From positions 1 to 64,000 of the forward strand of contig OMVY01000001.1 of NCBI GenBank assembly GCA_900314635.1: a DNA stretch of 64,000 nt. The letters are read 5' to 3'. The notes beneath the pieces were generated by a model. It saw only the letters and a program-made list of their open reading frames with translations, had not been told where the DNA came from and made no database searches. Position numbers and translations under genes: made by a program. The DNA is from an uncultured Methanobrevibacter sp. (GTDB taxonomy: Archaea > Methanobacteriota > Methanobacteria > Methanobacteriales > Methanobacteriaceae). Below are positions 198-34,247 of this stretch, one piece after another. Positions within the stretch are counted from its first letter, which is position 1; the number at the start of each line of letters is the position of its first letter.

Positions 198-1202
198 ATG
201 ATTCCAAAAGTAATGATAATTCTTGGAAGTGCTTCCGATAAGGAAATAGCTATTAAATCAATAAAGATATTGGAAAAACTTCAAATCCCATATAGCTTAA
301 AAGTGGCTTCTGCACATAGAACCCATGATAAGGTTAAAAGACTCGTTATGGATGCAACTAACCTAGGAGTGGAAGTCTTCATAGGGATTGCAGGTCTCGC
401 TGCTCACTTGCCTGGAGCAATAGCTGCATATACACACAGGCCAGTTATTGGAGTTCCTGTTGACGGTGCAGTTGGAGGACTTGATGCATTGTATGCATGT
501 GTGCAAATGCCTTTCCCTACAGCGGTTACAACAGTTGGAATAAACAGGGGAGACAATGCTGCAATACTTGCTGGAGAAATCATAGCAAGCTATGATAAGG
601 AAGTTGCAGAAAGAATCTCTGCATTGCGTGTAGAATATCAGGAAAAGGTAGAATCTGGTGAAAAGGAGCTTATTGAAAGTCTTGAAGGGGAACACTTCCA
701 AAAAGACTTTTTGGCTGAAGAAAATTATGAAAAGATTGATTTTGAAGAGTTAGATGACACTCCAGATGTAATGATACTTGCAGGAAGCTATTCTGATATG
801 GAAATAGCTAAAAATGTAGCTATTTTACTTGAAAGAATGCAAATTGAATATAAATTAGATTACATTTCTCCAATCAGACATGCAAAAGACTTTGAATCCT
901 ATATGAGCAAAAGAAACAATGCTAAATTATTCATTGCCATAAGCGGTTTGTCTGCACTTGTGGCAGGATCTGTTGTTGCATTAACTGAAAAACCTGTTAT
1001 TGGAGTGCCATGTTCCAAAAAGCTAGATGGCCAAGACGCTCTCTTGACTATGGCAAATATGCCTCCAGGAGTGCCTGTTGGAACAGTTGGAATAGACAAT
1101 GGAAGAAATGCAGCAATCGTAGCAGGAGAAATCCTTGCAATATCAAATAAGCAAATTGAAGAAAACTTAAAATGGATTAAATACAAAAATGCTGACTTAT
1201 AA
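198..1202 (+). CDS. purE: PurE, tandem-domain N5-CAIR mutase / AIR carboxylase
   Basis: This enzyme acts in de novo purine synthesis, making 4-carboxy-5-aminoimidazole ribonucleotide. The 334-residue protein is two PurE domains in a row, where a bacterial PurE is about 165 residues. Domain 1 (about 5-150) has GSASD, SAHRTH and AAHLPGA, which match the substrate-binding and His motifs of the family. Domain 2 (about 190-325) keeps AGSYSD and TVGIDNGRNAA, but SAHR has become SPIRHA and AAHLPG has become SALVAG, so it has probably lost catalysis. The start is the ATG behind a strong AGAGGAG site. It is followed 70 bases later by a UbiD-family gene on the same strand. Confidence 0.93.
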   Translation: MIPKVMIILGSASDKEIAIKSIKILEKLQIPYSLKVASAHRTHDKVKRLVMDATNLGVEVFIGIAGLAAHLPGAIAAYTHRPVIGVPVDGAVGGLDALYACVQMPFPTAVTTVGINRGDNAAILAGEIIASYDKEVAERISALRVEYQEKVESGEKELIESLEGEHFQKDFLAEENYEKIDFEELDDTPDVMILAGSYSDMEIAKNVAILLERMQIEYKLDYISPIRHAKDFESYMSKRNNAKLFIAISGLSALVAGSVVALTEKPVIGVPCSKKLDGQDALLTMANMPPGVPVGTVGIDNGRNAAIVAGEILAISNKQIEENLKWIKYKNADL

Positions 1203-2577: not shown

Positions 2578-3549
2578 ATGGATAATGTGGGTATTATAGG
2601 AGCAGGAAGCCTAGGGACAGCTTTAGCTCAAATAGTAGCTCAAAATGCAGATAATGTATTTCTTTTTCTTAGAAGGGAAGAATTGGCCGATACAATTAAT
2701 TCAACCGGCATTAATAACGAATACTATCCCAATGTCAAATTGGAAAAAAATATAATTGCTACTGTCGATTATAATGATTTGAAAGGATGTAAAATAATAT
2801 TTTTATCCATTCCTTCATCTGCATTTAGAACAACATTGTCTGAAATAAGAGATTATATAGATGAAGATGCAATTCTTGTCTCTACCGCAAAAGGTATTGA
2901 ATATCCCTCATTGAAAACTATGGGAAACTTAATTGAAGAATACTTTAACGATGAATATGTTTCATTATCTGGACCTAACTTTGCATCAGAAATTGTTTTA
3001 AATCTTGCAACTGTTTCTAACATCGCATCAAAAAACAAAGAAAATGCAATGAAAGTAAAAGAGGTTTTGTCAACCCCACAATTTAAAGTAAAGATTTTAG
3101 ACGATGTTATTGGTCTTGAAATATGCGGGGTTATAAAAAATATCAATGCAATAGCTAATGGAATATGTGAAGGAATGAACATTAATGAAAATGCAAGATA
3201 TGCTGTTTTGACAAAAGGATTTGAAGAAACTAGAAAAATAATTGAAAGTGTTGGAGGAAATCCTTCTACATCTGGAGAGTACTGTGGATTTGGAGATCTT
3301 GTGCTTACTTCTACTTCTAGTGAAAGCAGAAACCATACACTTGGAATGTTATATGGGCAAAGGATAATTGTTGATGAAAAGGCAAGTGGAATTGTATTTG
3401 AAGGGAAAAACTCAATTATGGCCATAAAAGACATTTGTAAAAAAACTAATACAAAAAGCGTGATAGTTGACTTTGTATATGATATAATTGTTAATCAAAT
3501 CCCTCCTAAAATAGCTTTCAAGGATTTATGGGAGAATATTGAGAATTAA
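2578..3549 (+). CDS. gpsA: NAD(P)-dependent sn-glycerol-3-phosphate dehydrogenase (GpsA type)
   Basis: The enzyme reduces dihydroxyacetone phosphate to sn-glycerol 3-phosphate. The 323-residue protein has an N-terminal Rossmann motif (GAGSLGTALA, about 8-17), the GPNFA variant of the family GPSFA motif near 138, the catalytic-lysine segment GVIKNINAIANGICEGM near 182-198, NARYAVLTKGFEE, and GFGDLVLTSTSSESRN. All functional segments look intact. Archaeal membrane lipids use sn-glycerol 1-phosphate, so this bacterial-type enzyme is better explained as the precursor supply for the next gene, a CDP-glycerol-type cytidylyltransferase. It starts behind TAGGTGATTTT and appears to head the polymer cluster. 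Confidence 0.88.
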   Translation: MDNVGIIGAGSLGTALAQIVAQNADNVFLFLRREELADTINSTGINNEYYPNVKLEKNIIATVDYNDLKGCKIIFLSIPSSAFRTTLSEIRDYIDEDAILVSTAKGIEYPSLKTMGNLIEEYFNDEYVSLSGPNFASEIVLNLATVSNIASKNKENAMKVKEVLSTPQFKVKILDDVIGLEICGVIKNINAIANGICEGMNINENARYAVLTKGFEETRKIIESVGGNPSTSGEYCGFGDLVLTSTSSESRNHTLGMLYGQRIIVDEKASGIVFEGKNSIMAIKDICKKTNTKSVIVDFVYDIIVNQIPPKIAFKDLWENIEN

Positions 3550-3625: not shown

Positions 3626-4939
3626 ATGAAAAAAATTATTACCTATGGTACATTCGACATGTTTCACCAAGGACATTATAATATTTTGAAAAGAGCAAAA
3701 GATTATGGAGATTATCTAATTGTTGGTGTCACTGGAGAAAACTATGATATTGGAAGAGGAAAACTAAGCGTTCATGATACTCTTGCAACAAGAATTGAAA
3801 ATGTAAAAAATACCGGATTGGTAGACGAAATCATAGTTGAAGAATATCTTGGACAGAAAATTGGAGACATCATCAAATATGACATAGATTCTTTTGTAAT
3901 AGGAGATGATTGGGTTGGTAAATTCGATCATTTGTCTAGATATTGCAATATGGTCTATTTAGAAAGAACAAAAGGCATTTCAAGTACAAAACTTAGAGAA
4001 GAAACATTTGAAAAATATGACATAGGTATAATCACTGATGAAATAGATGATAATGAATTAGTGAAAGAAGCAAAATTGGTAAATGGATTTGAAGTGAAAA
4101 ATGTTTATTGTGACAGTGAAAAGACCTTGAACGGTTTCCAGGAAAAGTATAACGTTGAAAATGTTTTTGATGATTATGGTAAAATGATTGAAGCCTCAGA
4201 TATTGTTTTCGTTCGTTGCAGCATTGAAAAAAGATTCAATTATATTCGCCAAGCATTAGAATCCGGAAAACATGTTATTTATGACTCCCCTGCAACATTT
4301 AAATCTAGTGAATTAGAGGAATTGCTAGATTTATCAAAAGAAAAAAACGTTATCCTAATGGAAAACATAAAAATGGTTCATATTTATGTATTTAATCAAT
4401 TATTGTGGATGACACAAGGGGGATTGATTGGAGATATCTTGAGTTTCAATTGTTCCATTTCAAAAAATGATGAAAGCCGTTCCAACTTATTCTATGATTT
4501 AAGTGCATTAAGTCTACTTCCTATGTTAAAAATCATGGGTCAAAACTATGAAAAAGCTGATTTCAAAGTTACAAAAGATGGTGAAGAAATTGAATTTGCT
4601 TCAATGAACTTTGTATACCCAAATGGAAGAGCTGTAATTAATGTAGGAAATGTAGTCCGTGTAGATAACCAATTAGAAATTATTGGAACAAAAGGAACTA
4701 TCCGTATGAGAGGAAATTGGTGGAGAAGTAAAAACTTCAGTCTTCACAAGCCTGGAGAAATCGATGCGGAATTATATAATACAAACTTTGAAGGAAACGG
4801 ATTTAAATATTTGATTAAAGCAATGTCAACTATGTTAAAAAATAATAGTATTGATTCAATGGGTGTATTTGAAGACGAATCCTTAAAAATTGTTGAAATT
4901 TTAGAACAGGTTAAAAAGACTGATGATAATACCTTATAA
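3626..4939 (+). CDS. TagD-like cytidylyltransferase fused to a Gfo/Idh/MocA-like domain
   Basis: This is a two-domain protein of 437 residues. Residues 1-130 are a glycerol-3-phosphate cytidylyltransferase-like domain: GTFDMFHQGH holds the HxGH-type nucleotide site and RTKGISSTKLRE is the ISSTK-type motif, so it should make CDP-glycerol or a related CDP-polyol. Residues about 145-435 resemble the Gfo/Idh/MocA oxidoreductase fold, with ALESGKHVIYDSPATFKSSE aligned to the family AGKHV-EKP segment. The usual catalytic Lys of EKP is Ser here, so this half may bind a cofactor or sugar without redox activity. It lies 76 bases after gpsA and before two LicD-like genes, which suggests one operon. Confidence 0.85.
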   Translation: MKKIITYGTFDMFHQGHYNILKRAKDYGDYLIVGVTGENYDIGRGKLSVHDTLATRIENVKNTGLVDEIIVEEYLGQKIGDIIKYDIDSFVIGDDWVGKFDHLSRYCNMVYLERTKGISSTKLREETFEKYDIGIITDEIDDNELVKEAKLVNGFEVKNVYCDSEKTLNGFQEKYNVENVFDDYGKMIEASDIVFVRCSIEKRFNYIRQALESGKHVIYDSPATFKSSELEELLDLSKEKNVILMENIKMVHIYVFNQLLWMTQGGLIGDILSFNCSISKNDESRSNLFYDLSALSLLPMLKIMGQNYEKADFKVTKDGEEIEFASMNFVYPNGRAVINVGNVVRVDNQLEIIGTKGTIRMRGNWWRSKNFSLHKPGEIDAELYNTNFEGNGFKYLIKAMSTMLKNNSIDSMGVFEDESLKIVEILEQVKKTDDNTL

Positions 4940-5085
4940 TTCCTTAAAAATTGTTGAAAAAATAAAATAACTTAAAAAAACTGATGGTAATACCTTTTAA
5001 TGAATCATTAGAATTATAAAAAATAAAGGAAATTTAAAAATTTAAATCATGACATTGATGATTGTTTAAATAGGAGAAATTATTG

Positions 5086-6726
5086 ATGAATGCTTTACAT
5101 GAAAACTTGTTTAAGCTCTTGATTGAGTTAGATGATATTTGCAGCGAAAATGATATCGATTATTGTCTAGCTGGAGGAACAGCATTAGGAGCAATTAGAA
5201 ATCAATGCTTCCTACCATGGGATGATGATATAGATTTATACATTACACGGGATAATTGGATTAAATTACGTGATTTGGTTAGTGAAAATCCAGAAATATT
5301 ACCTGAAAACAGAAATTTAGTATGTATAGAAAATGCTCCATATCATAGAAATCCAATTGTTCGTTATGTTGATACAACCAAAACAACAATTTATCCAGCA
5401 CAATCAATATCTGCGAAAACATGTGGTGATCAAATTGAATTCTTTATATTAGATCCAATTCCAAATCCTGAAGATGGGCAGAAAGAGCATTTGAATCAAA
5501 TGAGAGCATTTTTAGAAATTCTTTCACCTTACTTTATGGTTTGTAAAAGCCTTCCATTAGAAGAATATGCAGCCCATAGAGATTTAGTTTTAAGCTATTA
5601 CAAAAAAATTGATAAAAAAGGGTATTCAGAAGTAATGGGCAAATTATACGATGAATTATATAATTACCCTATAGAAAAAGCAGACACTCTCTGTTTACGT
5701 TGGGGTATTCGTACATTGCTTCATAAAACAAAATTTTATAGAGAAAAACGTTATGAGGAATTGGAAGGGAGGAAATTCCCAGTAGCTTATGAATTGGAAC
5801 ATGCATTAAGGACAGATTATGGGGACACTTGGATGTATATTCCGGAAGGTGAAAGAAAATTATCTCATAATCCATTAGTGGAAGACCCAAATCGTTCATT
5901 TGAAGATTTTACAAGTATTTATCTTCAATTCATCAATCAAGATAAAGTGGTTCATGCTTATGAAATGAATAAGCGCAACAATTTAAAATTGTGGATTCCT
6001 AGAAGAAAAGTTGAACTGGAAAAAGCTAGAATGAAGGGAATCATAGCGAAAAAGGAAATAGATAAAAAAATTGAATTCAATGATTATGATTTAAATCAGC
6101 TATTAAAAGATGAGGAATATGAAATATTGAATGATCTTTTTGGCAGTTATTATTCAATTCAATTAAATCAAAACTGTAGAAAATATAATTTTCTAATAGA
6201 TATTGATAAAGAGCTGATTAAAATAGCTCTCCTAAATAAAATTAAGCAAGGGCAATATTATACAGCAAGGAATATAATAAATATTCTTGAAGTGAATTTC
6301 GAACTTGATGATGATTTCAAGCATTTGAAAGAAATGTGTATATTTTGCAAAAAATTATCCATTGCAATCTATGACGATTATGATATTGATGCAATAGAAA
6401 ACTTATTGAATGATGTTGTAGAGGATTGTGAAAACCTAGTTGATACATATAGAGCAAGATTATGGTTAAATATTAAAAAAGCAGAAAATAATACGGATTA
6501 TGAAAAGGTTATCTCAAAAGGAAGTGAAATGCTAATAGACTATCCAAAAGATGGTGAGATAATGGCTTATATAGCTGAAGCGTATTATCATTTAGGTAAT
6601 GTGGAAAAAGCAACAGAAATCTATGATGAAGCAGTACACCATACAAGAAATGGATTTGTTTGGCAATATGCAAAACGATATGTTGGTATTGATAGAATGG
6701 CGGAGGAAGAAATTGATGTTGACTAG
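5086..6726 (+). CDS. LicD-family phosphotransferase with TPR-like C-terminus
   Basis: LicD proteins transfer a phospho-substituent such as phosphocholine from a CDP-activated donor to a surface glycan. Residues about 10-60 carry the family signature: DYCLAGGTALGAIR followed by PWDDDIDLYI, with the metal-binding Asp cluster intact. The LicD region reaches about residue 270. After that come helical segments, and about 470-535 looks like tetratricopeptide repeats (AYIAEAYYHLGNVEKATEIY). The ATG at 5086 is preferred over an in-frame TTG at 5083 because of the AGGAG nine to ten bases upstream. Its 3' end overlaps the next gene by 11 bases. The natural donor is unknown; CDP-glycerol is a reasonable guess from context. 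Confidence 0.85.
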   Translation: MNALHENLFKLLIELDDICSENDIDYCLAGGTALGAIRNQCFLPWDDDIDLYITRDNWIKLRDLVSENPEILPENRNLVCIENAPYHRNPIVRYVDTTKTTIYPAQSISAKTCGDQIEFFILDPIPNPEDGQKEHLNQMRAFLEILSPYFMVCKSLPLEEYAAHRDLVLSYYKKIDKKGYSEVMGKLYDELYNYPIEKADTLCLRWGIRTLLHKTKFYREKRYEELEGRKFPVAYELEHALRTDYGDTWMYIPEGERKLSHNPLVEDPNRSFEDFTSIYLQFINQDKVVHAYEMNKRNNLKLWIPRRKVELEKARMKGIIAKKEIDKKIEFNDYDLNQLLKDEEYEILNDLFGSYYSIQLNQNCRKYNFLIDIDKELIKIALLNKIKQGQYYTARNIINILEVNFELDDDFKHLKEMCIFCKKLSIAIYDDYDIDAIENLLNDVVEDCENLVDTYRARLWLNIKKAENNTDYEKVISKGSEMLIDYPKDGEIMAYIAEAYYHLGNVEKATEIYDEAVHHTRNGFVWQYAKRYVGIDRMAEEEIDVD

Positions 6727-7891
6727 ACGAGAGATACAAATCAAATTACTTCGTAAACTCAATGAACTTTGTGAAAAAGCGGATGTTAAATATGTATTGC
6801 ACGGTCATGGAGCGTTTCTAGCATATTTTGGAGAGCCAATTGAAAATTTAGCATCATTAGAAGTGATGATGTGTCAAGGAGATGCTGAAAAAGTAGCTGA
6901 TTTGCTGGATGATGATGATTTCTATTTTGAAGATTTCAGAACAAATCCTAAGTTTGACAAACACTTTATGATGTTAGGATATAAAGACTCATTAGACTTG
7001 AAAGGAAAAGAAGTTGATTTTAGAAAGTCCAGACATATTGAAAACAATTGTATTCATATCAATATTCGTTTTATAGAACATCCCGCTCGAAAAGGAACCG
7101 GTAAAAAACTGAAATTTAAACGTAGATTATGGAAACTCAGATATTTGGATTTGGAAACAAATCACCTATGGTATTTGAACTACAGCAAAAAAGCGTTGAA
7201 TGGATTTTATCATATTACCGGAAACAAACGTTCCATTAATAGAAGATATAATGTTAAAAAAGAAAATTTTTCAATTTGGACATGGGATGAAATAAAAAAT
7301 TATCCTCTTGTGAAAATGGCTGGAACAAAAGCTATAGACTCTAATTTATTTGATAAAATAATCAAAAAAGATATAGAAGGTATTCCAGCATATATTTTTG
7401 AAGATTTTAATCGTTACGCTGAATTTTATTACGGAAAAGAATGGCGTGATAAAAAATGGAAAGGACCCACAGGATTTACAAGCAGCATAATTAATTGGGA
7501 AGAATTTTCAAATGATCCTGAAATTCAAGAGTCTTTAGATAAGATGCAAATGCTTTATGAGGAAATTTATTCCAGAAGCCCAATAGCAAAAAGACATAAA
7601 ACCGTTATTAGAGACATGAAAAGGCATGTTAAACAAAGTGGACGAGTTATCCATACACGTGAAGAGTTTATCGGGCAAAAAGAAGATATCTTGAAACTAT
7701 ATGATAATAAAAACATTGAAAAATTAACCTTAATTTTAAAACCATTAATGGAAGCACAAGAACATGGAATCCGTGTAGGATATACTTTTTCAGTTGATGA
7801 AGACATTGATGAGATTCTAGATTGGTATTTGAGAGAAACTGACAGAAAAGAATTAGCTGATAAAATTAAAAAACAGAGGATTGATATTTAA
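6716..7891 (+). CDS. LicD-like protein lacking the Asp cluster
   Basis: The 391-residue protein resembles the LicD fold: it opens with a helix and then KYVLHGHGAFLAYFGEP, which parallels the glycine-rich segment of the upstream LicD. Where that protein has WDDDID, this one has ENLASLEVMM, so the metal-binding Asp residues are not visible at the expected place. It may be a non-catalytic partner or use different residues. An open frame extends upstream to 6599, but the ATG at 6716 sits behind GCGGAGGAAG, inside the 3' end of the previous gene, indicating translational coupling. Family assignment is moderately sure, activity is not. Confidence 0.7.
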   Translation: MLTRREIQIKLLRKLNELCEKADVKYVLHGHGAFLAYFGEPIENLASLEVMMCQGDAEKVADLLDDDDFYFEDFRTNPKFDKHFMMLGYKDSLDLKGKEVDFRKSRHIENNCIHINIRFIEHPARKGTGKKLKFKRRLWKLRYLDLETNHLWYLNYSKKALNGFYHITGNKRSINRRYNVKKENFSIWTWDEIKNYPLVKMAGTKAIDSNLFDKIIKKDIEGIPAYIFEDFNRYAEFYYGKEWRDKKWKGPTGFTSSIINWEEFSNDPEIQESLDKMQMLYEEIYSRSPIAKRHKTVIRDMKRHVKQSGRVIHTREEFIGQKEDILKLYDNKNIEKLTLILKPLMEAQEHGIRVGYTFSVDEDIDEILDWYLRETDRKELADKIKKQRIDI

Positions 7892-8021: not shown

Positions 8022-9083
8022 ATGTATTATATAAATAAAAATGTGGAGGATTTATTTAGAATTTTTGATCAAAATTCAAGAGATGGATATATTCGTATGG
8101 ACTTAAACGAAAATCCTGTTGGATTATCACAAGAGTTTATTGATGAAGTCCTTTCAAAAGTTACACCAGAGTTCGTTGCAAAATATCCTGAACAACTGGA
8201 ATTCACTACAAAACTAGCAGAATTCATAGGTGTTGAAATAGAAAACATTTGTTTAGTGAATGGTTCTGCTGAAGGTATTCGTTATGTTATTCAAGCATAT
8301 AGTAGACCTGGAGGAAAAGTCCTATCAGTCACCCCATCATATGCAATGTATGATGTCTACTGTGAAATGTATGGAAGAGAAAGTGTTCATGTTGAGTATG
8401 ACGAAAATTTAAATATGGATGTTGATGATATCATCAATGCAATAAGCGATGATATTGATTTGGTGATCATATTAAACCCAAATAATCCAGTTGGCGATGT
8501 CTACTCCTATGAAGAAGCAGATAGAATATTAGAAGCTTGTAAAAAACATGAATGTACCTTATTGATTGATGAAGCATATTTCTACTTCTATCCAAATTCA
8601 TTTATCAAATATGCATTGGAAAATGATCACGTATTATTAACAAGAACATTTTCAAAGGTATTTTCCTTAGCAGGTGGCCGTTTAGGATATGTTGTTGGTC
8701 AGCCAAAAGAAATAGCTACTGTACAAAAATTATGCACTCCTCATAATGTGAATGCATTTGGAATGTTATTTGCTCAATCAATTATGGAAAAAGAAGGTAT
8801 GATTGATGAATTGGTAGAAAAGCAATTAACCGGTAAACAACATTTAATTGATACCTTAATTGAAAAAGGATATACTGTAAGTGCTAAGGAAGGAAACTTT
8901 ATATTTATTAAACCCAAAAAAGTGGATGCTTCTGAAATCGTTGAAAGAATGAAAGAAGAAAAGAAAATTTTAATAAAAGTATACAAGGATGTTCCTGACT
9001 TAGGAGATTGCTTACGTGTTTCTATTGGAGAAAGTGAGGTTATGGACATATTCATTGAAGCATTAGAAGATATTGATCAATAA
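8022..9083 (+). CDS. HisC-like PLP-dependent aminotransferase
   Basis: This is a class I/II, fold-type I aminotransferase of 353 residues, closest in look to histidinol-phosphate aminotransferases. RMDLNENPVG near the N-terminus, LNPNNPVGDV near 152, DEAYFYFYP near 186, the PLP-lysine segment TRTFSKVFSLAGGRLGY near 206-222 and the C-terminal RVSIGESE with its carboxylate-binding Arg are all present. No histidine genes adjoin it; it sits in the polymer cluster behind its own AGGAGG site. A role in making an amino-substituted building block is more likely than histidine synthesis, but the substrate cannot be read from sequence. Confidence 0.82.
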   Translation: MYYINKNVEDLFRIFDQNSRDGYIRMDLNENPVGLSQEFIDEVLSKVTPEFVAKYPEQLEFTTKLAEFIGVEIENICLVNGSAEGIRYVIQAYSRPGGKVLSVTPSYAMYDVYCEMYGRESVHVEYDENLNMDVDDIINAISDDIDLVIILNPNNPVGDVYSYEEADRILEACKKHECTLLIDEAYFYFYPNSFIKYALENDHVLLTRTFSKVFSLAGGRLGYVVGQPKEIATVQKLCTPHNVNAFGMLFAQSIMEKEGMIDELVEKQLTGKQHLIDTLIEKGYTVSAKEGNFIFIKPKKVDASEIVERMKEEKKILIKVYKDVPDLGDCLRVSIGESEVMDIFIEALEDIDQ

Positions 9084-9238
9084 AAATATATAATTTAATT
9101 TACAATTCTATTTAGAAAATACAAGAATGTTTACGATTCAAATTAAAAATAATTAATGTTTAATATTCAATTAAAACTAAGTGAATTATCAAATTATTTT
9201 CTGTTAAATTAAAAAAAGGGATAAAAGGAATGATTTAA

Positions 9239-10354
9239 ATGAAGATTTGTATTGTCGGAGCAGGTAATATTGGTTTAGTATTAGCTAGTACAATAGCTCT
9301 ACTTAAAAAACATGAAGTTGTAATATACACTCATAAGGAATTTGATGTTTCTAAATTAGTATTTGAAGATGTTGAAAATGGAAAAAAATATACAAATCTT
9401 GATATTAAAATAGAAACTGATCTTAAAAAAGCTTTAGATAATGCAAGTTACGTATTCTGCACATATCCAGCATTCTTAAGAAAAGACTTTATTAAAGAAA
9501 GTAAGGAATTCTATCCAAAAGGATGTAAACTAGGTTTCTTGCCAGGATATGGTGGAGCAGAATATATGTGTAAAGAACTAGTTGAAGATGGCATTAGTGT
9601 ATTTGGCTTACAGCGCGTTCCTTTTGTTGCAAGACAATCCAATAAGGAAATAGCTAGTTGCCTATCAAGAAAAACAAATTTATACCTTGCATCAATTCCT
9701 AAAAATAAATCAGAAGAAATTTGTAAAGAGATTGAGGAATTGATTTCCATTCCTACCATCCCATTGAATGAATACTTGGCAGTGACATTAGCTCCATCCA
9801 ACCCATTATTACACTTATCAGGAGTATATAATGTATTTAAGGATTATAACGAGGGAGATTCATACGATAGACAATTAATGTTCTATGAAGAATGGAATGA
9901 TGAAACTTCCAAATTATTGTTAAAATACGATGAAGAACTTCAAGAAATATGCAATCGTATGAAGCCATTAAACCTAGAAGAGGTAGTTTCATTAAAAATT
10001 TATTATGAATCACCTACTGCAGAGGCAATGACTAAAAAATTAAAAAGCATAAAAGCATTTGAAGTTGTTCAGGTCCCATTGATTGAAAAAGAAGGAAAAT
10101 TCTATCCTGATTTCAATTCAAGAATGTTTTTAGAAGATTTCCCATATGGAATTGCAATTATTAAATACTTCGCAATATTAACTGATGTTGAAACTCCAGC
10201 AATAGACACAATTTTAAAATTCTATGAAGATAAGCAAGGAATTTGCTATTTCAATGAAGATGGTAGTCCAGGAAAAGACTTTGAAAACTCTGGAATTCCA
10301 GCAAATTACGGTTTAGATAGTTTAGAGTCTATTATAAATTATTATAGAATATAA
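9239..10354 (+). CDS. Octopine/nopaline (opine) dehydrogenase-family protein
   Basis: Opine dehydrogenases join an amino acid and a 2-oxo acid by reductive amination. The 371-residue protein has an N-terminal Rossmann motif (IVGAGNIGLVLA), FLPGYGGAEYMCKE near 101-114, GLQRVPFVAR near 123, and the C-terminal-domain segment APSNPLLHLSGVY near 182-194, whose His fits the catalytic His of the family; FYEEWNDETS follows. It directly follows an aminotransferase, so the two may supply and condense an amino acid for a polymer substituent. This is inference; the substrates are unknown. An A-rich leader with GGAATGATTT precedes the ATG. Confidence 0.8.
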   Translation: MKICIVGAGNIGLVLASTIALLKKHEVVIYTHKEFDVSKLVFEDVENGKKYTNLDIKIETDLKKALDNASYVFCTYPAFLRKDFIKESKEFYPKGCKLGFLPGYGGAEYMCKELVEDGISVFGLQRVPFVARQSNKEIASCLSRKTNLYLASIPKNKSEEICKEIEELISIPTIPLNEYLAVTLAPSNPLLHLSGVYNVFKDYNEGDSYDRQLMFYEEWNDETSKLLLKYDEELQEICNRMKPLNLEEVVSLKIYYESPTAEAMTKKLKSIKAFEVVQVPLIEKEGKFYPDFNSRMFLEDFPYGIAIIKYFAILTDVETPAIDTILKFYEDKQGICYFNEDGSPGKDFENSGIPANYGLDSLESIINYYRI

Positions 10355-10435: not shown

Positions 10436-12481
10436 ATGATGAAAAATCCTAAAATTTCAGTTATTGTACCTATTTATAATATTGAAGAGTATCTAGAAGA
10501 TGCCCTAGATTGTCTGACAAAACAAAGTTTTATAGAAAATATGGAAGTTTTAATGATTGATGATGGGAGCACTGATAATTCTAGATACATTATAGAAAAA
10601 TATGCACTAGACTTTGATAATTTTTTTGCATACCATAAAGAAAATGAAGGACCTACAGTAGCTAGAAATTATGCAATAGAATTTGCTAAAGGAGAGTATA
10701 TTACTTTTTTTGATGGTGATGATCATATAAATAGAGATATTTATGAAAAACTTTACAATATGGCTAAAAAAAATGATTCAGATATATCTATTGCTAATAG
10801 TATAAGATTAAGAAGGTATAATTTGGTTGATAGCTTATTTTTTAAAAAGAGTTTTGAGAACATTGACAAAGATATAGATTGCACAAATTTAGAAGAAACC
10901 CCTGATTTATTATGGGATCTATTTTTATGGAATAAATTATTTAAAAGAGAATTGATTTTAGATAATAATATTAGGTTTATTGACGAAAAATGTTATTATG
11001 CTGATGCTCCATTTACCCTAAAAGCGTATGCTTATGCAAAGAGGATATCTGTATCAAAAGATATTTTTTATTACTGGAGATACAGAGAAAATAAAAATTT
11101 ATCTATTACTCAAAAAAGTTCATCCATAAATAATTTTTATGACAGAATAAAAATAATAGATTTGTGTTTTGATGTAATAAAAACTGGTCTATTGAACGAA
11201 AGTTTAATCAAAGATTTATATTCAAAAATATTAAATCATGATTTACATGTTCATTTAAAAAAATTTTATCAATACGATGAAGTATATTACCCAGATATAG
11301 TAGAGAAGGTTTCTAAAATAATTAGTATCATTCCTAATGAAATAAAAGACGATTTAAACTCTTTTAAGAAAATAATATACAAAATGGTAGAAAATAAAGA
11401 TTACGATGGATTATACAATTTCTCATCACTATACTTAGAGTTAATGAAAAATCCACACATTCCTAAAGATTTAGATGAAAAATACATTAAATTTATTGAT
11501 TTTGAAAAAGATGCAATAGATGAAGAATTAATTGTTAAAAAGGAAAATATCTATTATGATAATGAAAACATTTACATCGATTTTACTGAAAAAATAAATT
11601 ATCTAAAAGATGATACCATTCATAAAACAAACGCGTACATTATTTCTAATGACGATGAGAAATATAAATTAGAATTAAATGATTTAAGCAATATAGATAA
11701 AGATGAGGTAGAAGAGGATGAACCTGAAAGAAAATCCAAACAGATTAGAATTCCTATCAATTTTATCTCAAATAAAAAACATATGCGAATAAAAGTTGAA
11801 TACATAGGTAAAAAATTAAAAAAAGAAGCATTTTTAAGAAATTCAAAACGAGAGGTGTTGAGTTTTAAAAATTTTGATGCAGAAATAGGAATTGGAATTA
11901 ACAGAATACTTTATATAGATATAAGACCGACTAATGACTTAAAGATTAAAATTAAAAATGTCGAATTTGTAGATGAGGTATTAGAGTTTTATGGAATTTC
12001 TGATAATAAAATAGATAATGTTTATATTGAAAATGTAGTTACTTTTGAAAAAATCAAATATCCCGTTTTAAACTATGAAAAAGAAAATAAATACACATTC
12101 AAGTTTTCAATACCCTATAATGAAATCCTGGAAAGGCCAATTAGAAAATGGGAATTAAAAACTGAAAGAACATTTAAAACTATAGAATTAGATAAAAAAT
12201 TTGAATTTTATACTCTAAGAAATAAGATAAGAGTATTGAACACTAGAAATAAAATTTTAATTTCAGACGACTTTTATAATTCGAATAAAACATTAGAAGA
12301 AGATTTTGATGAAATATTAAGATTAAAAAATGAGAAAAGTAAACTAAAACAAATGAATAAAAAGTTAAAAAAAGAAAATAAACATTTGAAAGAAGAAAAT
12401 AAAGCATTAGAAAAAACTATAGAAAAATATAAGTCTAGATTTGTTGTAAAAACAACTGATAAAATCAAAAAGATATTATAA
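10436..12481 (+). CDS. GT2 glycosyltransferase with long C-terminal extension and coiled coil
   Basis: The N-terminal 230 residues are a GT-A family 2 glycosyltransferase: ISVIVPIYNIEEYLEDAL, MIDDGSTDNS, and FFDGDDH as the DxD metal site. The remaining 450 residues are not a recognised catalytic domain. Residues about 370-600 are Asp/Lys/Asn-rich and probably beta-rich, and about 610-665 is a strongly charged coiled coil (KKLKKENKHLKEENKALEKT). Similar extended GT2 proteins occur in teichoic-acid-type loci, which fits the location. The protein probably works at the inner membrane face on a lipid-linked acceptor. A GTG-ATATG arrangement precedes the ATG-ATG start. Confidence 0.82.
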   Translation: MMKNPKISVIVPIYNIEEYLEDALDCLTKQSFIENMEVLMIDDGSTDNSRYIIEKYALDFDNFFAYHKENEGPTVARNYAIEFAKGEYITFFDGDDHINRDIYEKLYNMAKKNDSDISIANSIRLRRYNLVDSLFFKKSFENIDKDIDCTNLEETPDLLWDLFLWNKLFKRELILDNNIRFIDEKCYYADAPFTLKAYAYAKRISVSKDIFYYWRYRENKNLSITQKSSSINNFYDRIKIIDLCFDVIKTGLLNESLIKDLYSKILNHDLHVHLKKFYQYDEVYYPDIVEKVSKIISIIPNEIKDDLNSFKKIIYKMVENKDYDGLYNFSSLYLELMKNPHIPKDLDEKYIKFIDFEKDAIDEELIVKKENIYYDNENIYIDFTEKINYLKDDTIHKTNAYIISNDDEKYKLELNDLSNIDKDEVEEDEPERKSKQIRIPINFISNKKHMRIKVEYIGKKLKKEAFLRNSKREVLSFKNFDAEIGIGINRILYIDIRPTNDLKIKIKNVEFVDEVLEFYGISDNKIDNVYIENVVTFEKIKYPVLNYEKENKYTFKFSIPYNEILERPIRKWELKTERTFKTIELDKKFEFYTLRNKIRVLNTRNKILISDDFYNSNKTLEEDFDEILRLKNEKSKLKQMNKKLKKENKHLKEENKALEKTIEKYKSRFVVKTTDKIKKIL

Positions 12482-12585: not shown

Positions 12586-13353
12586 ATGATTGGTGTGATA
12601 TTGGCCGCAGGAATGGGTACTAGACTAATGCCTCTAACTAAAGAAATTCCTAAAGCATTGCTTGAAATAAATGAAATGACATTGCTTGAGAGAATGATTA
12701 AAAACTGTATAAATGCAGATATAAAAAAATTTATTGTTGTTGTAGGATACAATAAAGAAAAAGTAATGGGTTTATGCCCCTTAATAGCTGAAAAGTATGA
12801 TATAGAAATAAAAACTATTGTAAATGAAAAATATGATGTGACAAACACTTCCGTGTCAACTTATCTTGCCAGTAAATTCATTGAGGAAAATGATTTGGAT
12901 GATTTTATTTTAGTAAATGGAGATAATGTTGTAGATCCGGAAATCATTTCTAAATTAGTTGCTTCTAAAAATACTGGAATGATAATAGACAATTTTAAAG
13001 AACTGAATGAAGAATCATTCAAACTTATAATTGATGATGAATCATTAAATGATGAGAAAACAATAGCTAATGGTAAAATTAATTCAATAGGCAAACAATT
13101 GGATATTCCATCATCCAGCGGAGAATTTATTGGAGTATCAAAAGTACTTTATGATGATGTGGCAGAATTCAATAGAATTTTAGAGGGATTAATAGAAGAT
13201 GATCCTCAAAACTATTATGATTTTGCATATAAAGATTTAAGCATTATTAAAACAATTGATTTTGTTTTAACAAATGGTTTAAAATGGACTGAAATAGATG
13301 ACCATAACGACTGGAAAAATGCCAAGGCACTAATAAAAGAATTAGAAGGATAA
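12586..13353 (+). CDS. LicC-like nucleotidyltransferase
   Basis: This 255-residue protein has the nucleotidyltransferase signature at its N-terminus: VILAAGMGTRLMPLTKEIPKA, with the G-x-G-T-R and PK elements. GDNVVDPEII near 107 is the metal-binding Asp segment, and DFAYKDLS and KWTEIDDHNDW near the C-terminus match choline-phosphate cytidylyltransferase-like (LicC) enzymes. LicC-type enzymes make the CDP-activated donor that LicD proteins use, which matches the two LicD-like genes upstream. A sugar-1-phosphate substrate remains possible. GTGATAAA precedes the start, and the next gene begins 20 bases after the stop. Confidence 0.8.
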   Translation: MIGVILAAGMGTRLMPLTKEIPKALLEINEMTLLERMIKNCINADIKKFIVVVGYNKEKVMGLCPLIAEKYDIEIKTIVNEKYDVTNTSVSTYLASKFIEENDLDDFILVNGDNVVDPEIISKLVASKNTGMIIDNFKELNEESFKLIIDDESLNDEKTIANGKINSIGKQLDIPSSSGEFIGVSKVLYDDVAEFNRILEGLIEDDPQNYYDFAYKDLSIIKTIDFVLTNGLKWTEIDDHNDWKNAKALIKELEG

Positions 13354-13372: not shown

Positions 13373-14584
13373 ATGGCCGTAATAATTAATAAAATAAAAA
13401 AAATTGTTTTAAATATAGGCAAACATTTAGTCAGAGGACTATACATTATCGGATCATATATTATTCCTGTTAATGATAAGATTATTCTCTTTGAATCAAG
13501 TAATGGCCGAAATTTTACTGGAAATCCTAAATCCATCTATGAAGAAATATTAAATCAGGGATTAGACAATGAATTCAAATGTGTATGGGTATTTACAGAT
13601 ACAAATACTAAAACAAATGGAAATCCAATAAAAGTTAAAAAATCATTTTTTAAATTTCTATATTACACCCTTAGAAGCGGAACTTGGGTTTTCGATTCAA
13701 GGCATTTATACTACCTTAGGAAAAATAAGAAAACAAAGTATATTCAAACATGGCATGGAACACCCCTTAAAAAACTAGCACTGGACATGGATTACATAGA
13801 TATGAGCGGCAATCAAGACATAAGCCAGTACCATGATGACTTTAAGAAAAATACTGCATTGTGGGAGTATCTGATTTCACAAAACAGCTATTCCTCTGAG
13901 ATTTTCAAAAGAGCTTTCGATTTTAAGGGTGAGATGCTGGAAATTGGATATCCGCGTAATGACATTCTAATAAACAAAAACAAGCCGGAAGACATTGAGG
14001 AGATAAAAACCAGATTGAATATTCCTAAAGATAAAAAGATTATTCTTTATGCTCCTACCTGGAGAGACAATGAGTATTATGCAAAAGGAGAATACAAATT
14101 CGCTACAGAAATGGATTTCGACAAAATGTATAAGGAATTGAAGGATGATTACATTTTAATCGTTAAATTCCATTATTTAGTAAAAGAAAACATTGATTGG
14201 AGCAAATATGATGATTTTGTAATTGAATGCGATGCTGATTGGGATATTCAGGAATTATACTTGATTTCAGATATGATGATAACAGATTACTCATCAGTGA
14301 TGTTTGATTATTCCATTTTAAAAAGGCCTATGATATTCTTCACATATGACTTGGAAAATTATAAAAACAATTTAAGAGATTTCTATTTCGATATGGTTGC
14401 AGAAGTCCCCGGGCCTATATGCGAAACCAATGATGAAATGATTGATTTCATAAAAAATTACACCGAAGAGGATTATGCATCAGAATTCGGTGAAAAATAT
14501 AAGAAATGGAATGAAAAGTTCAATCCATTTGACGATGGAAACGCATCTAAAAAGATCATTGAATTAATTAGAACTAAAAAATAA
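13373..14584 (+). CDS. CDP-glycerol glycerophosphotransferase-family protein (TagB/TagF-like)
   Basis: The family (Glyphos_transf) moves glycerol phosphate from CDP-glycerol to a prenyl-linked primer or growing chain in bacterial teichoic acid synthesis. In this 403-residue protein the key signatures are QTWHGTPLKKLALDMD near residues 122-137, where the His is catalytic in TagF, then IGYPRNDIL near 187, LYAPTWRDNEY near 219, KFHYLVKEN near 262, and the nucleotide-site segment MITDYSSVMFDYSIL near 301. It closes the cluster that begins with gpsA and tagD-like genes, so the route glycerol-3-phosphate, CDP-glycerol, poly-glycerol-phosphate is complete in principle. It starts behind AAGGGATAAT. 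Confidence 0.88.
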   Translation: MAVIINKIKKIVLNIGKHLVRGLYIIGSYIIPVNDKIILFESSNGRNFTGNPKSIYEEILNQGLDNEFKCVWVFTDTNTKTNGNPIKVKKSFFKFLYYTLRSGTWVFDSRHLYYLRKNKKTKYIQTWHGTPLKKLALDMDYIDMSGNQDISQYHDDFKKNTALWEYLISQNSYSSEIFKRAFDFKGEMLEIGYPRNDILINKNKPEDIEEIKTRLNIPKDKKIILYAPTWRDNEYYAKGEYKFATEMDFDKMYKELKDDYILIVKFHYLVKENIDWSKYDDFVIECDADWDIQELYLISDMMITDYSSVMFDYSILKRPMIFFTYDLENYKNNLRDFYFDMVAEVPGPICETNDEMIDFIKNYTEEDYASEFGEKYKKWNEKFNPFDDGNASKKIIELIRTKK

Positions 14585-18139: not shown

Positions 18140-19123
18140 TTATTCTAATGCCTCTTTAACTATGTCTTCAAGGATTTCAATTAGGATGTCATCATCACAG
18201 ATTGGGTCTGGGTATAATATTTCCCCGTCAAATTCCATTTTGACATCATCATGTCCATGATGATGGTGATGATGTCCATGAGAATGACTATGGCCATGAT
18301 CATGGTCGTGGTCATGACTGTGTTCATGGTCATGGGAGTGAGAATGTCCATGGTCGTGATGATGGTGATGGTGATGGCCAGTTCCATCATCTTCAATGAA
18401 TCCTAAAATGGTTGGAATATCCCTTGTAGTGTGTGCTCCAGGAGCAATGAATACAGGTACAACAACCAATCTGTCCACTTCGTTTTCACTTACAAGCTTG
18501 TTGATGGAAGTAGGAATGTTAGGATCTACAAGTTCCATGAATCCAAAGTCACATGGATAATCAGTTTGTGCTTCAAATTGTCCGAATAAGTCTGTGATAA
18601 ATTCCTTGCTGTAATTCAATCTGCTTCCATGTACAACAAGCAAGACACCGGTTTTTGCATCTGCGTCAAGTTCTGATTCTTCAAGTGCGCCGCTTATTTT
18701 GCTGTTGATAATTTTCAATAGCTTTGGATTAGGGCCAATAGGACCTAATAAGTCAATTTCTCCATCGAAATCAACCTCTTCGAGGCCGTATAAATAATGT
18801 CCTTCAGGATAGATTCCATCTGGTTGTCTTGGATCTGTTTCCTTAGGTTCAAGACCAAGTATGATTGGTATGTCAATGTTAGTGTGAATTCCAGCAGCTA
18901 AAAATACTGGAGTAGCTATAATGCGTTTTAAGTTAGGATTGCGTTCTTTTAAAATGTTAATGGCTTCAGGTAAGTTTGGACGAGCCACTTTCATGTATCC
19001 TACTTCAGCATCGAATTCTGTCTTTGCCTTAAACTTAGCGCATATCTTTTTAAAAACTTCCTCTGCATAGGGAAGAGTACTTCCATGGCTTAACAATAAT
19101 ACAGCAGTGTCTTCATAAGTCAT
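18140..19123 (-). CDS. cfbA: Sirohydrochlorin chelatase, tandem CbiX domains with His-rich stretch (CfbA)
   Basis: In methanogens CfbA inserts nickel into sirohydrochlorin on the way to coenzyme F430; the same enzyme can serve cobalamin. The 327-residue protein has two CbiX domains. Domain 1 (about 7-90) has LLSHGS and AAGIHTNIDIP; domain 2 (about 160-245) has VVHGSR and PGAHTTRDIP. Each thus has the two metal-site His residues that single-domain archaeal CbiX proteins of about 130 residues use as homodimers. Residues about 248-292 are almost pure His/Asp/Gly/Ser, a probable nickel store or metal-loading tail, followed by a 35-residue acidic end. GTGATATT precedes the ATG. Confidence 0.88.
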   Translation of the reverse strand: MTYEDTAVLLLSHGSTLPYAEEVFKKICAKFKAKTEFDAEVGYMKVARPNLPEAINILKERNPNLKRIIATPVFLAAGIHTNIDIPIILGLEPKETDPRQPDGIYPEGHYLYGLEEVDFDGEIDLLGPIGPNPKLLKIINSKISGALEESELDADAKTGVLLVVHGSRLNYSKEFITDLFGQFEAQTDYPCDFGFMELVDPNIPTSINKLVSENEVDRLVVVPVFIAPGAHTTRDIPTILGFIEDDGTGHHHHHHHDHGHSHSHDHEHSHDHDHDHGHSHSHGHHHHHHGHDDVKMEFDGEILYPDPICDDDILIEILEDIVKEALE

Positions 19124-33089: not shown

Positions 33090-34247
33090 GTGGAAAATAT
33101 TTTTGATAATTTAGAAGGTAGAAAAACAATATTCAAAGACAAGAAGTCTTTGGATCACAGGTTCTTGCCGGAACACCTGCCTCACAGGAGTGAGCAGATA
33201 ACTTCCATTGCAAAATACTGGGTGGAAGCATTGAACAACATCACTCCGTCCAATATTACAATTTATGGAAAAACAGGAACAGGTAAAACCGCAGCAGCAA
33301 AATTTGCAAAGGAGCAGCTGCTGGAAGCATCTGAAGACAAGAATGTTTTCATCAGAGTGGAATATATCAGATGCACTGATTTTACAACAGAGTATCAGGT
33401 CATAGCACACTTATGTCAAAAGCTGGGCCGTGATGTTCCAAACAGAGGATGGACAAAGGCGGAAATCATAAAAGCCTTTGATGACATATTCAAAAGAACA
33501 GTCTTCGGCAAGAAATTGATTTTGATAGTAATTCTCGATGAAGTGGACATATTGCTTTCCAAGGATGGAGATGGTATTTTATACACTCTTTCAAGAACAC
33601 CTAATGTATCCATTCTCTCCATCAGCAATTACCTGGACTTCAAACAGTTCATCAAATCCAGAGTATCTTCATCACTTTCGGATAAGGAGATAGTATTCCC
33701 TCCATATGATGCTGAACAATTGGCCGACATCCTCAACGAGCGTTCCAAACTGTCATTCAAAGAAGGAGTTCTTGAAGACAGCGTCATTCCTCTATGTGCT
33801 GCAATGGCCGCAAAGGAGGAAGGTGATGCGAGATATGCTTTAGATTTACTTCAAACAGCTGGTGAGATTGCTGATGACAAGGAATCAGACATGATTTACG
33901 GATCATATGTCAAGGAAGCTAAAAACATAATTGAATATAACAAGGTCAATGAAGTAATCATGACACTTCCAACCCAACAGCAAAGGCTTCTTGCATCTAT
34001 TTTAAAGCTTACCGAGGACAAGGAGGAAATCACTTCAGGAAAGCTGTATGAAGTTTATTCCGAAATTTCAAAAGGAGATGCTGTGACTTACAGAAGGATA
34101 TTTGACTTTATCAACGAGCTTGAGCTGCTTGGAATCATCTCTACAAACACTGTTTCCCGCGGTCGTGCAAAGGGAAGAACAAATATCATCACACTTCAGT
34201 GTGATACAGAACTTCTGGAAGAGAATTTAGCTCATATTTTATATTAA
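33090..34247 (+). CDS. cdc6: Orc1/Cdc6 origin-binding initiator ATPase
   Basis: This AAA+ protein of 385 residues recognises origin boxes and loads the replicative helicase. Walker A is [15 protein letters not shown] near residue 60, Walker [13 protein letters not shown] near 148, sensor 1 LSISNYLDF near 177, and an arginine-finger-type region [18 protein letters not shown] follows. The C-terminal 100 residues are a winged helix ([19 protein letters not shown]), which binds the box. The start is GTG at 33090 behind AAGAAGGGATTAT; the overlapping ATG is out of frame. The adjoining box-rich region makes its role as origin initiator likely. Confidence 0.94.

What the first reader, a model, noticed from the sequence alone, without database searches (positions are those of the whole stretch)
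3626..4939. Cytidylyltransferase fused to a Gfo/Idh/MocA domain without the catalytic lysine
The TagD-like half is intact, while the second half has DSP where active family members have EKP. A cytidylyltransferase joined to a redox-fold domain could couple substrate sensing or channelling to activation, for example by reducing a keto-polyol first or by binding the CDP product.
Basis: partly seen in the sequence, partly recalled or inferred. Interest (0 to 1): 0.6.

Follow-up and report, generated by a model that had tools for sequence, protein, structure and literature searches.

The report
Nucleotidyltransferase carrying a dead reductase domain
A gut methanogen has a surface-polymer enzyme that joins an apparently working cytidylyltransferase to a reductase-like domain that has lost all its redox machinery yet is strongly conserved, and across gut bacteria and archaea such dead versions usually sit beside an aminotransferase gene, which hints at an undescribed amino-polyol activation pathway.

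Summary
In detail: ORF 3626-4939 (+, 437 aa) is a TagD-type cytidylyltransferase (res 1-125) fused to a Gfo/Idh/MocA-fold domain with YDSP in place of CEKP. Fold prediction confirms the MocA fold. The fusion is not unique: 43 of 139 family genomes, 37 of 392 Lachnospirales genomes, Prevotella, Erysipelotrichaceae, a Ruminococcus plasmid. Many relatives keep an intact redox site (34 of 94 classified), so the ancestor was probably a bifunctional reductase-cytidylyltransferase. Redox residues were lost at least twice, yet the dead half is under strong purifying selection. Dead copies sit near an aminotransferase (47/60, always same strand); intact ones do not (1/34). Amine-modifying enzymes and LicD are also enriched. 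Best reading: the dead domain is kept as a ligand-binding or assembly platform for a cytidylyltransferase that makes a CDP-activated amino-polyol (or CDP-glycerol) for LicD transferases. Anatomy, phylogeny and gene association are shown; the substrate is inferred. Redox coupling in the window protein is not supported. With only two independent losses, the association is suggestive, not proven causal.

The parts
3626..4000 (+). TagD-type cytidylyltransferase half (res 1-125)
   Evidence: PF01467 8.3e-17; 1COZ alignment 1.2e-33; TIGR01518 111.6 bits, below its 165.4 cut-off
4001..4936 (+). Gfo/Idh/MocA-fold half (res 126-437) without redox residues
   Evidence: PF01408 2.8e-11; AF2 pLDDT 83; Foldseek 3evn TMt 0.85, KijD10 TMt 0.79-0.82
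4019..4063 (+). Degenerate NAD(P) glycine loop, DIGIITDEIDDNELV (res 132-146)
   Evidence: Alignment column comparison
4280..4291 (+). YDSP replacing CEKP (res 219-222; S221 aligns with catalytic K102 of KijD10)
   Evidence: the K102A/K102E/Y186F mutant entries are named
4370..4372 (+). K249, Lys/Arg in nearly all fused relatives, Trp in stand-alone outgroup MocA
2578..3549 (+). GpsA-type glycerol-3-phosphate dehydrogenase, 76 bp upstream
   Evidence: PF01210/PF07479; NF000942 over cut-off
5083..6726 (+). LicD-family phosphotransferase with C-terminal TPR
   Evidence: PF04991 1.4e-19
6716..7891 (+). Second LicD-like gene (ORF listed from 6599; ATG at 6716 is the likely start)
   Evidence: no Pfam family above cut-off of its own; homologue L133:6042-7199 hits PF04991 2.7e-7
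8022..9083 (+). HisC-like aminotransferase; a paralogue, the genome's true HisC lies elsewhere
   Evidence: PF00155; TIGR01141 241.8 bits, under the 276.55 cut-off, versus 358 for the true HisC; clusters with other C-group ATs
9239..10354 (+). Opine (octopine)-dehydrogenase-like protein
   Evidence: PF02317 1.5e-22
10436..12481 (+). Family 2 glycosyltransferase with coiled-coil tail
   Evidence: PF00535 3.3e-29
12586..13353 (+). LicC-like nucleotidyltransferase
   Evidence: PF00483 8.5e-17
13373..14584 (+). CDP-glycerol glycerophosphotransferase family (TarF-like)
   Evidence: PF04464 9e-115; NF041712 343 bits, under its cut-off

Best explanation
The protein is a cytidylyltransferase carrying a pseudo-reductase domain. 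Its lineage began as a bifunctional reductase-cytidylyltransferase for a CDP-polyol, the state still seen in EKP relatives (inferred from the tree). In two lineages the reductase half lost cofactor binding and catalysis (shown by sequence) but kept its fold and above all its C-terminal substrate-side domain (shown: purifying selection). The most likely job of the dead half is to hold the phospho-polyol or CDP-polyol and/or keep the enzyme assembled (inferred). In most dead forms the missing reduction seems to be replaced by transamination: a neighbouring aminotransferase would turn the keto-polyol phosphate (or its CDP adduct) into an amino-polyol, the TagD half would give the CDP derivative, opine-DH/OCD, GNAT or methyltransferase neighbours would modify the amine, and LicD proteins would transfer it to a surface glycopolymer (inferred). 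In the window itself, G3P from the adjacent GpsA giving CDP-glycerol remains possible.
For: MocA fold by AF2 and Foldseek. Same fusion with intact GxGRIA loop, EKP and GG..Y in archaea and many bacteria; Lys lost in two clades by parsimony. dN/dS of the dead half about 0.02-0.16 where dS is measurable; C-terminal domain more conserved than the Rossmann lobe in dead groups (76 v 61%, 65 v 48%) but hardly so in intact ones (54 v 50%). Aminotransferase within 5 genes: 47/60 dead v 1/34 intact, all 47 on the same strand, 38 of the 60 with one directly adjacent; holds when only LicD loci are compared (44/50 v 1/14). Two AT classes (V and HisC-like) substitute for each other in the same module. N-modifying neighbours 31/60 v 2/34. 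The window's HisC-like AT is not the genome's HisC. Genomes G044, G064, G075 and G126 have the dead fusion as their only strong TagD-type gene yet no GpsA and no glycerol kinase. DHAP to (S)-serinol-P transamination by Cj1437 is known (PMC11800397).
Against: Only two independent losses, so the AT association cannot be tested phylogenetically (at most 2 independent pairs). The bacterial cousins of the window clade (L133-135) are dead but have no AT within 5 genes. In the window the AT is third downstream, not adjacent, and GpsA is adjacent. No substrate, ligand or oligomer evidence; model coordinates could not be inspected. dS is saturated in many pairs. 13 of 60 dead-fusion loci carry no detected AT, some because the contig ends.
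Confidence: 0.4

Rival explanations
1. Plain CDP-glycerol synthase: GpsA (2578-3549) makes sn-glycerol 3-phosphate, the TagD half makes CDP-glycerol, TarF-like (13373-14584) and LicD proteins use it; the dead MocA half is only structural.
For: GpsA lies within five genes in 7 of 18 window-clade loci and a PF04464 transferase ends the same run of genes; the fusion is the only TagD-type protein above 100 bits in the genome; closest solved homologue is G3P cytidylyltransferase. M. ruminantium walls are phosphate-rich and its genome has teichoic-acid-like genes (PMC2812497).
Against: TIGR01518 score is below its cut-off in 15 of 15 fused genomes tested; near-complete genomes G044, G064, G075, G126 with the fusion lack both GpsA and glycerol kinase; does not explain the aminotransferase link. 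A LicC-like gene, not this one, abuts the TarF-like gene. Nearly all genomes of the window's genus carry GpsA, so adjacency is partly taxonomic.
Confidence: 0.28
2. The TagD half activates sn-glycerol 1-phosphate, the lipid precursor that every archaeon has, giving an enantiomeric CDP-glycerol; the dead half is structural.
For: Would remove the need for GpsA in the GpsA-less archaea; archaeal G1P is established knowledge.
Against: The same family is common in bacteria, which generally lack G1P; no explanation for the aminotransferases.
Confidence: 0.08
3. The MocA half is a sensor or allosteric domain (as the MocA-fold protein Gal80 is in yeast): it binds a metabolite and switches the cytidylyltransferase.
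For: Dead enzyme fold under purifying selection; Lys at beta-6 and C-terminal domain retained.
Against: No regulatory partner or ligand known; Gal80 (from memory) still binds NAD(P), whereas the loop is destroyed here.
Confidence: 0.14
4. The second half is an active oxidoreductase using K249 and an unusual cofactor site.
For: K249 is near-invariant in fused proteins and lies at the end of beta-6.
Against: K249 co-exists with the EKP Lys in 24 of 34 intact relatives; Lys and GG..Y are lost together in nearly all dead forms, and the Gly loop is lost in the whole window clade.
Confidence: 0.04

Closest known systems
Bcs1, CDP-ribitol synthase of H. influenzae, and TarI/TarJ (refs 48-49 in PMC10918830)
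   Same: Reductase and cytidylyltransferase for one CDP-polyol, fused in one chain in Bcs1; the intact EKP relatives look like the same idea.
   Different: As I recall, built from IspD-type and SDR/ADH-type domains, not TagD and MocA; the window's reductase half is dead.
C. jejuni HS5.18/HS5.17 CDP-6-D-glucitol pathway (PMC10918830)
   Same: A cytidylyltransferase paired with a reductase, here acting on the CDP-linked ketose.
   Different: PF01128 plus SDR (PF01370), separate genes, both active.
TagD / GCT (1COZ, TIGR01518)
   Same: N-terminal half homologous end to end, catalytic motifs kept.
   Different: Below the TIGR01518 cut-off; the ENW.QK segment and the lysine-rich loop of TagD read EEY.GQK and RGK here; carries an extra domain.
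KijD10 and other Gfo/Idh/MocA enzymes (3rc1, 3evn)
   Same: Fold of the second half; KijD10 structures hold a TDP ligand.
   Different: Active members keep the Gly loop, Lys and Tyr; the window does not.
Cj1437, DHAP aminotransferase giving (S)-serinol-P (PMC11800397)
   Same: Model for the inferred transamination step; I recall it as HisC-like, as the window's AT is.
   Different: In C. jejuni the serinol-P is amidated onto a glycan, not known to be CDP-activated.
PDB 6PD1 nucleotidyltransferase/class V aminotransferase fusion (I recall it as PntC-AEPT)
   Same: A nucleotidyltransferase coupled to a class V aminotransferase related to the ones here.
   Different: As I recall, a LicC-type domain making CMP-aminoethylphosphonate; the window's genome has no PEP mutase.
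Gal80 (yeast; from memory)
   Same: Non-enzymatic MocA-fold protein.
   Different: Binds NAD(P) and regulates transcription.

Membership tests
Gfo/Idh/MocA oxidoreductases | Rossmann plus C-terminal alpha/beta fold | tested here: met
   AF2 and Foldseek, TMt up to 0.85
Gfo/Idh/MocA oxidoreductases | Glycine-rich NAD(P)-binding loop | tested here: not met
   DIGIITDEIDDNEL; absent in the whole window clade
Gfo/Idh/MocA oxidoreductases | Catalytic Lys of EKP | tested here: not met
   S221 in the window, Pro or Ser in its clade
Gfo/Idh/MocA oxidoreductases | GG...Y (KijD10 Y186) region | tested here: not met
   SRSNLFYDLSALSL, Leu at the Tyr column in the window
Gfo/Idh/MocA oxidoreductases | NAD(P)-dependent activity | not testable with these tools
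   needs assay
Glycerol-3-phosphate cytidylyltransferase (TIGR01518) | CTP_transf_like fold with HxGH and RTxGIS motifs | tested here: met
Glycerol-3-phosphate cytidylyltransferase (TIGR01518) | Score above the equivalog cut-off | tested here: not met
   111.6 v 165.4 bits
Glycerol-3-phosphate cytidylyltransferase (TIGR01518) | G3P as substrate | tested here: inconclusive
   GpsA adjacent in the window, but GpsA and glycerol kinase absent in several genomes with the fusion
Bifunctional CDP-polyol synthase (Bcs1-like in function) | Active reductase and active cytidylyltransferase in one chain | tested here: not met
   reductase motifs lost in the window; kept in EKP relatives
TagD-MocA fusion family defined here | Same domain order, junction and beta-6 Lys across relatives | tested here: met

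The most novel reading that the evidence does not exclude
A widespread, undescribed gut bacterial and archaeal pathway makes CDP-activated amino-polyols: an ancestral one-chain keto-polyol reductase-cytidylyltransferase lost its reductase chemistry twice and had it replaced in trans by an aminotransferase, while the dead domain was kept to bind the shared intermediate.
Probability: 0.33. Interest if true: 0.75.

Novelty: new variant of a known kind. Interest (0 to 1): 0.55.

Why it matters
No paper found in the searched library describes this fusion. It offers a natural series, intact to half-lost to fully lost redox site in one fused family, for asking why a dead enzyme domain is kept. It also marks gene clusters in rumen and gut microbes that probably make CDP-linked building blocks not yet known. 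For methanogens it bears on the old, unexplained phosphate-rich wall polymer (PMC2812497), and the substrate question can be settled with a few purified enzymes.

Tried and rejected
Replacement Lys (K249): rejected, because it co-exists with EKP in intact relatives. Aminoethylphosphonate pathway: rejected for the window genome, which has no PEP mutase; the neighbouring TPP enzymes elsewhere are MenD-like or acetolactate-synthase-like, not phosphonopyruvate decarboxylase. 'GpsA replaces the lost reductase': GpsA is near 11/60 dead and 0/34 intact copies, but its genus-wide presence and its absence from several dead-fusion genomes make this weak. Some 'HisC' neighbours of intact copies turned out to be LicC-CobD-like fusions and were removed from the AT count. 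A regex-based motif call misfiled a few intact copies; it was replaced by alignment columns. The phylogenetic independent-pairs test had no power. Literature searches for the fusion or CDP-2-glycerol found nothing.

Full report
CHECKING THE OBSERVATION. The ORF at 3626-4939 (+) is real and is 437 aa long. Its first 125 residues are a TagD-type cytidylyltransferase (PF01467) that aligns end to end with B. subtilis glycerol-3-phosphate cytidylyltransferase 1COZ (1.2e-33), with HxGH and the RTxGIS-type motif. The rest matches PF01408, but only from profile position 24 on. An AlphaFold2 model (pLDDT 83) has Gfo/Idh/MocA-fold proteins as its best matches of known structure (3evn TMt 0.85, 3e9m 0.82-0.84, KijD10 0.79-0.82). 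The junction (res 116-128) and parts of the TagD half are modelled with low confidence.

Aligned to relatives, S221 of YDSP sits at the catalytic Lys (K102 of KijD10, whose K102A/K102E/Y186F mutants are among the matches). The NAD(P) loop reads DIGIITDEIDDNEL instead of NIGCVGAGRIAKRM, and the GG..Y region reads ESRSNLFYDLSALSL instead of TQGGGSISELISYPL. K249 at the end of beta-6 is near-invariant in fused proteins; in the 34 EKP-intact relatives the column holds Lys in 24 and Arg in 10, and stand-alone outgroup MocA has Trp. It is therefore not a relocated catalytic Lys.

THE FAMILY. The same fusion occurs in 43 of 139 genomes of the window's family at E<=1e-20 (about three of these are fragmentary matches), 37 of 392 Lachnospirales genomes, Prevotella, Erysipelotrichaceae and others, and a Ruminococcus albus plasmid. 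Ninety-four fusions with context were classified by alignment column: 34 are intact (loop, EKP, usually GG..Y), 37 form an ESP clade B, 18 the window's archaeal clade C, 3 are bacterial cousins of C (L133-135, 44-46% identical to the window protein), and 2 are odd (L034 ETP, L037 EPP). The tree (an earlier one) puts clade C plus its bacterial cousins (SH-aLRT 99) and clade B (100) apart. Parsimony gives two changes of the Lys state on the tree. The stem of clade C is long in the MocA half (2.58 changes per site) and its exact position is not secure.

THE DEAD HALF IS KEPT. Between close species dN/dS in the dead half is about 0.02-0.16 where dS can be measured; many pairs are saturated. In dead groups the C-terminal domain is clearly more conserved than the Rossmann lobe (76 v 61% in C, 65 v 48% in B), whereas in intact ones the two are alike (54 v 50%). 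This is what one expects if the cofactor lobe lost its job and the substrate or interface side did not (inference).

NEIGHBOURS. Dead copies have an aminotransferase within five genes in 47 of 60 cases, all on the same strand, with 38 directly adjacent; intact copies in 1 of 34. Restricting to loci with LicD gives 44/50 against 1/14. The aminotransferase is class V (PhnW/BhcA-like, below all equivalog cut-offs) in most, and HisC-like in the window and some others. The class V enzymes of B and C form separate clades, so each loss is tied to its own lineage of enzyme. Amine-modifying neighbours are also enriched: GNAT, OCD/mu-crystallin dehydrogenase, octopine-DH-like in the window, NodS-like methyltransferase in archaeal B loci (31/60 v 2/34). 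In several clade C loci the pair is OCD + class V AT; in the window it is octopine-DH-like + HisC-like AT. Intact copies instead sit with a stand-alone MocA gene (11/34 v 0/60) and more often with a PF04464 transferase (11/34 v 6/60); four have a separate TagD nearby. Because there were only two losses, the Fisher p-values (about 1e-13) are not evidence of independent repetition; the independent-pairs test has no power. The bacterial C cousins have no AT nearby, which counts against a strict replacement story.

SUBSTRATE. In the window GpsA lies 76 bp upstream and a TarF-like PF04464 gene ends the gene run, so CDP-glycerol is plausible. Against it as the general answer: the TIGR01518 score is below cut-off in all 15 genomes tested and the fusion is the only strong TagD-type gene there, and G044, G064, G075 and G126 (95-99% complete) have neither GpsA nor glycerol kinase. 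A phosphonate route is excluded for the window genome by the absence of PEP mutase (the assembly is 97% complete). The HisC-like AT is not the genome's HisC. DHAP transamination to (S)-serinol-P is a known reaction (Cj1437, PMC11800397), and cytidylylation of a ketose phosphate before reduction is known too (PMC10918830).

MECHANISM, WITH STATUS OF EACH STEP. Shown: fusion, fold, loss of all redox signatures, family with intact members, purifying selection, gene association. Inferred: ancestral reductase-cytidylyltransferase; dead half binds the phospho- or CDP-polyol or holds the complex together; aminotransferase supplies an amino-polyol phosphate or aminates the CDP adduct; amine modification; LicD transfer to a wall polymer. 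I put about 0.4 on this as a whole, and about 0.85 on the narrower claim that the window's second half is a non-redox domain under selection.

ORGANISM. The window lies in a 2.29-Mb genome whose near relatives all carry archaeal gene sets; archaeal-type genes in the window (for example an Orc1/Cdc6-like ORF at 33090-34247, by eye) and the relatives point to a Methanobrevibacter-like methanogen (inference, not named by any tool).

VERDICT. New variant of a known kind (CDP-polyol reductase-cytidylyltransferase pairs).

Noticed in passing
window 198-1202: Two PurE (AIR carboxylase) domains in tandem in one 334-aa ORF.
   Followed up: no
window 6599-7891: LicD-like second gene whose listed start overlaps the upstream LicD gene by 128 bases; ATG at 6716 is the more likely start.
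   Followed up: partly
window 8022-10354: HisC-like aminotransferase followed by an octopine-dehydrogenase-like gene; in sister loci a class V aminotransferase and an OCD/mu-crystallin dehydrogenase take these roles.
   Followed up: partly
L160 9549-11378, L142 11802-13637: LicC-type nucleotidyltransferase fused to a CobD/HisC-like PLP domain beside LicD genes.
   Followed up: no
L040 10960-12015, L137 7894-8880: Stand-alone MocA oxidoreductase directly downstream of intact fusions, never seen near dead ones.
   Followed up: partly
L032 11995-13269: The fusion is carried on a mobilizable Ruminococcus albus plasmid, pRUMAL01.
   Followed up: no
window 18140-19123: CbiX/sirohydrochlorin-chelatase-like ORF with a long His-rich stretch (by eye).
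   Followed up: no
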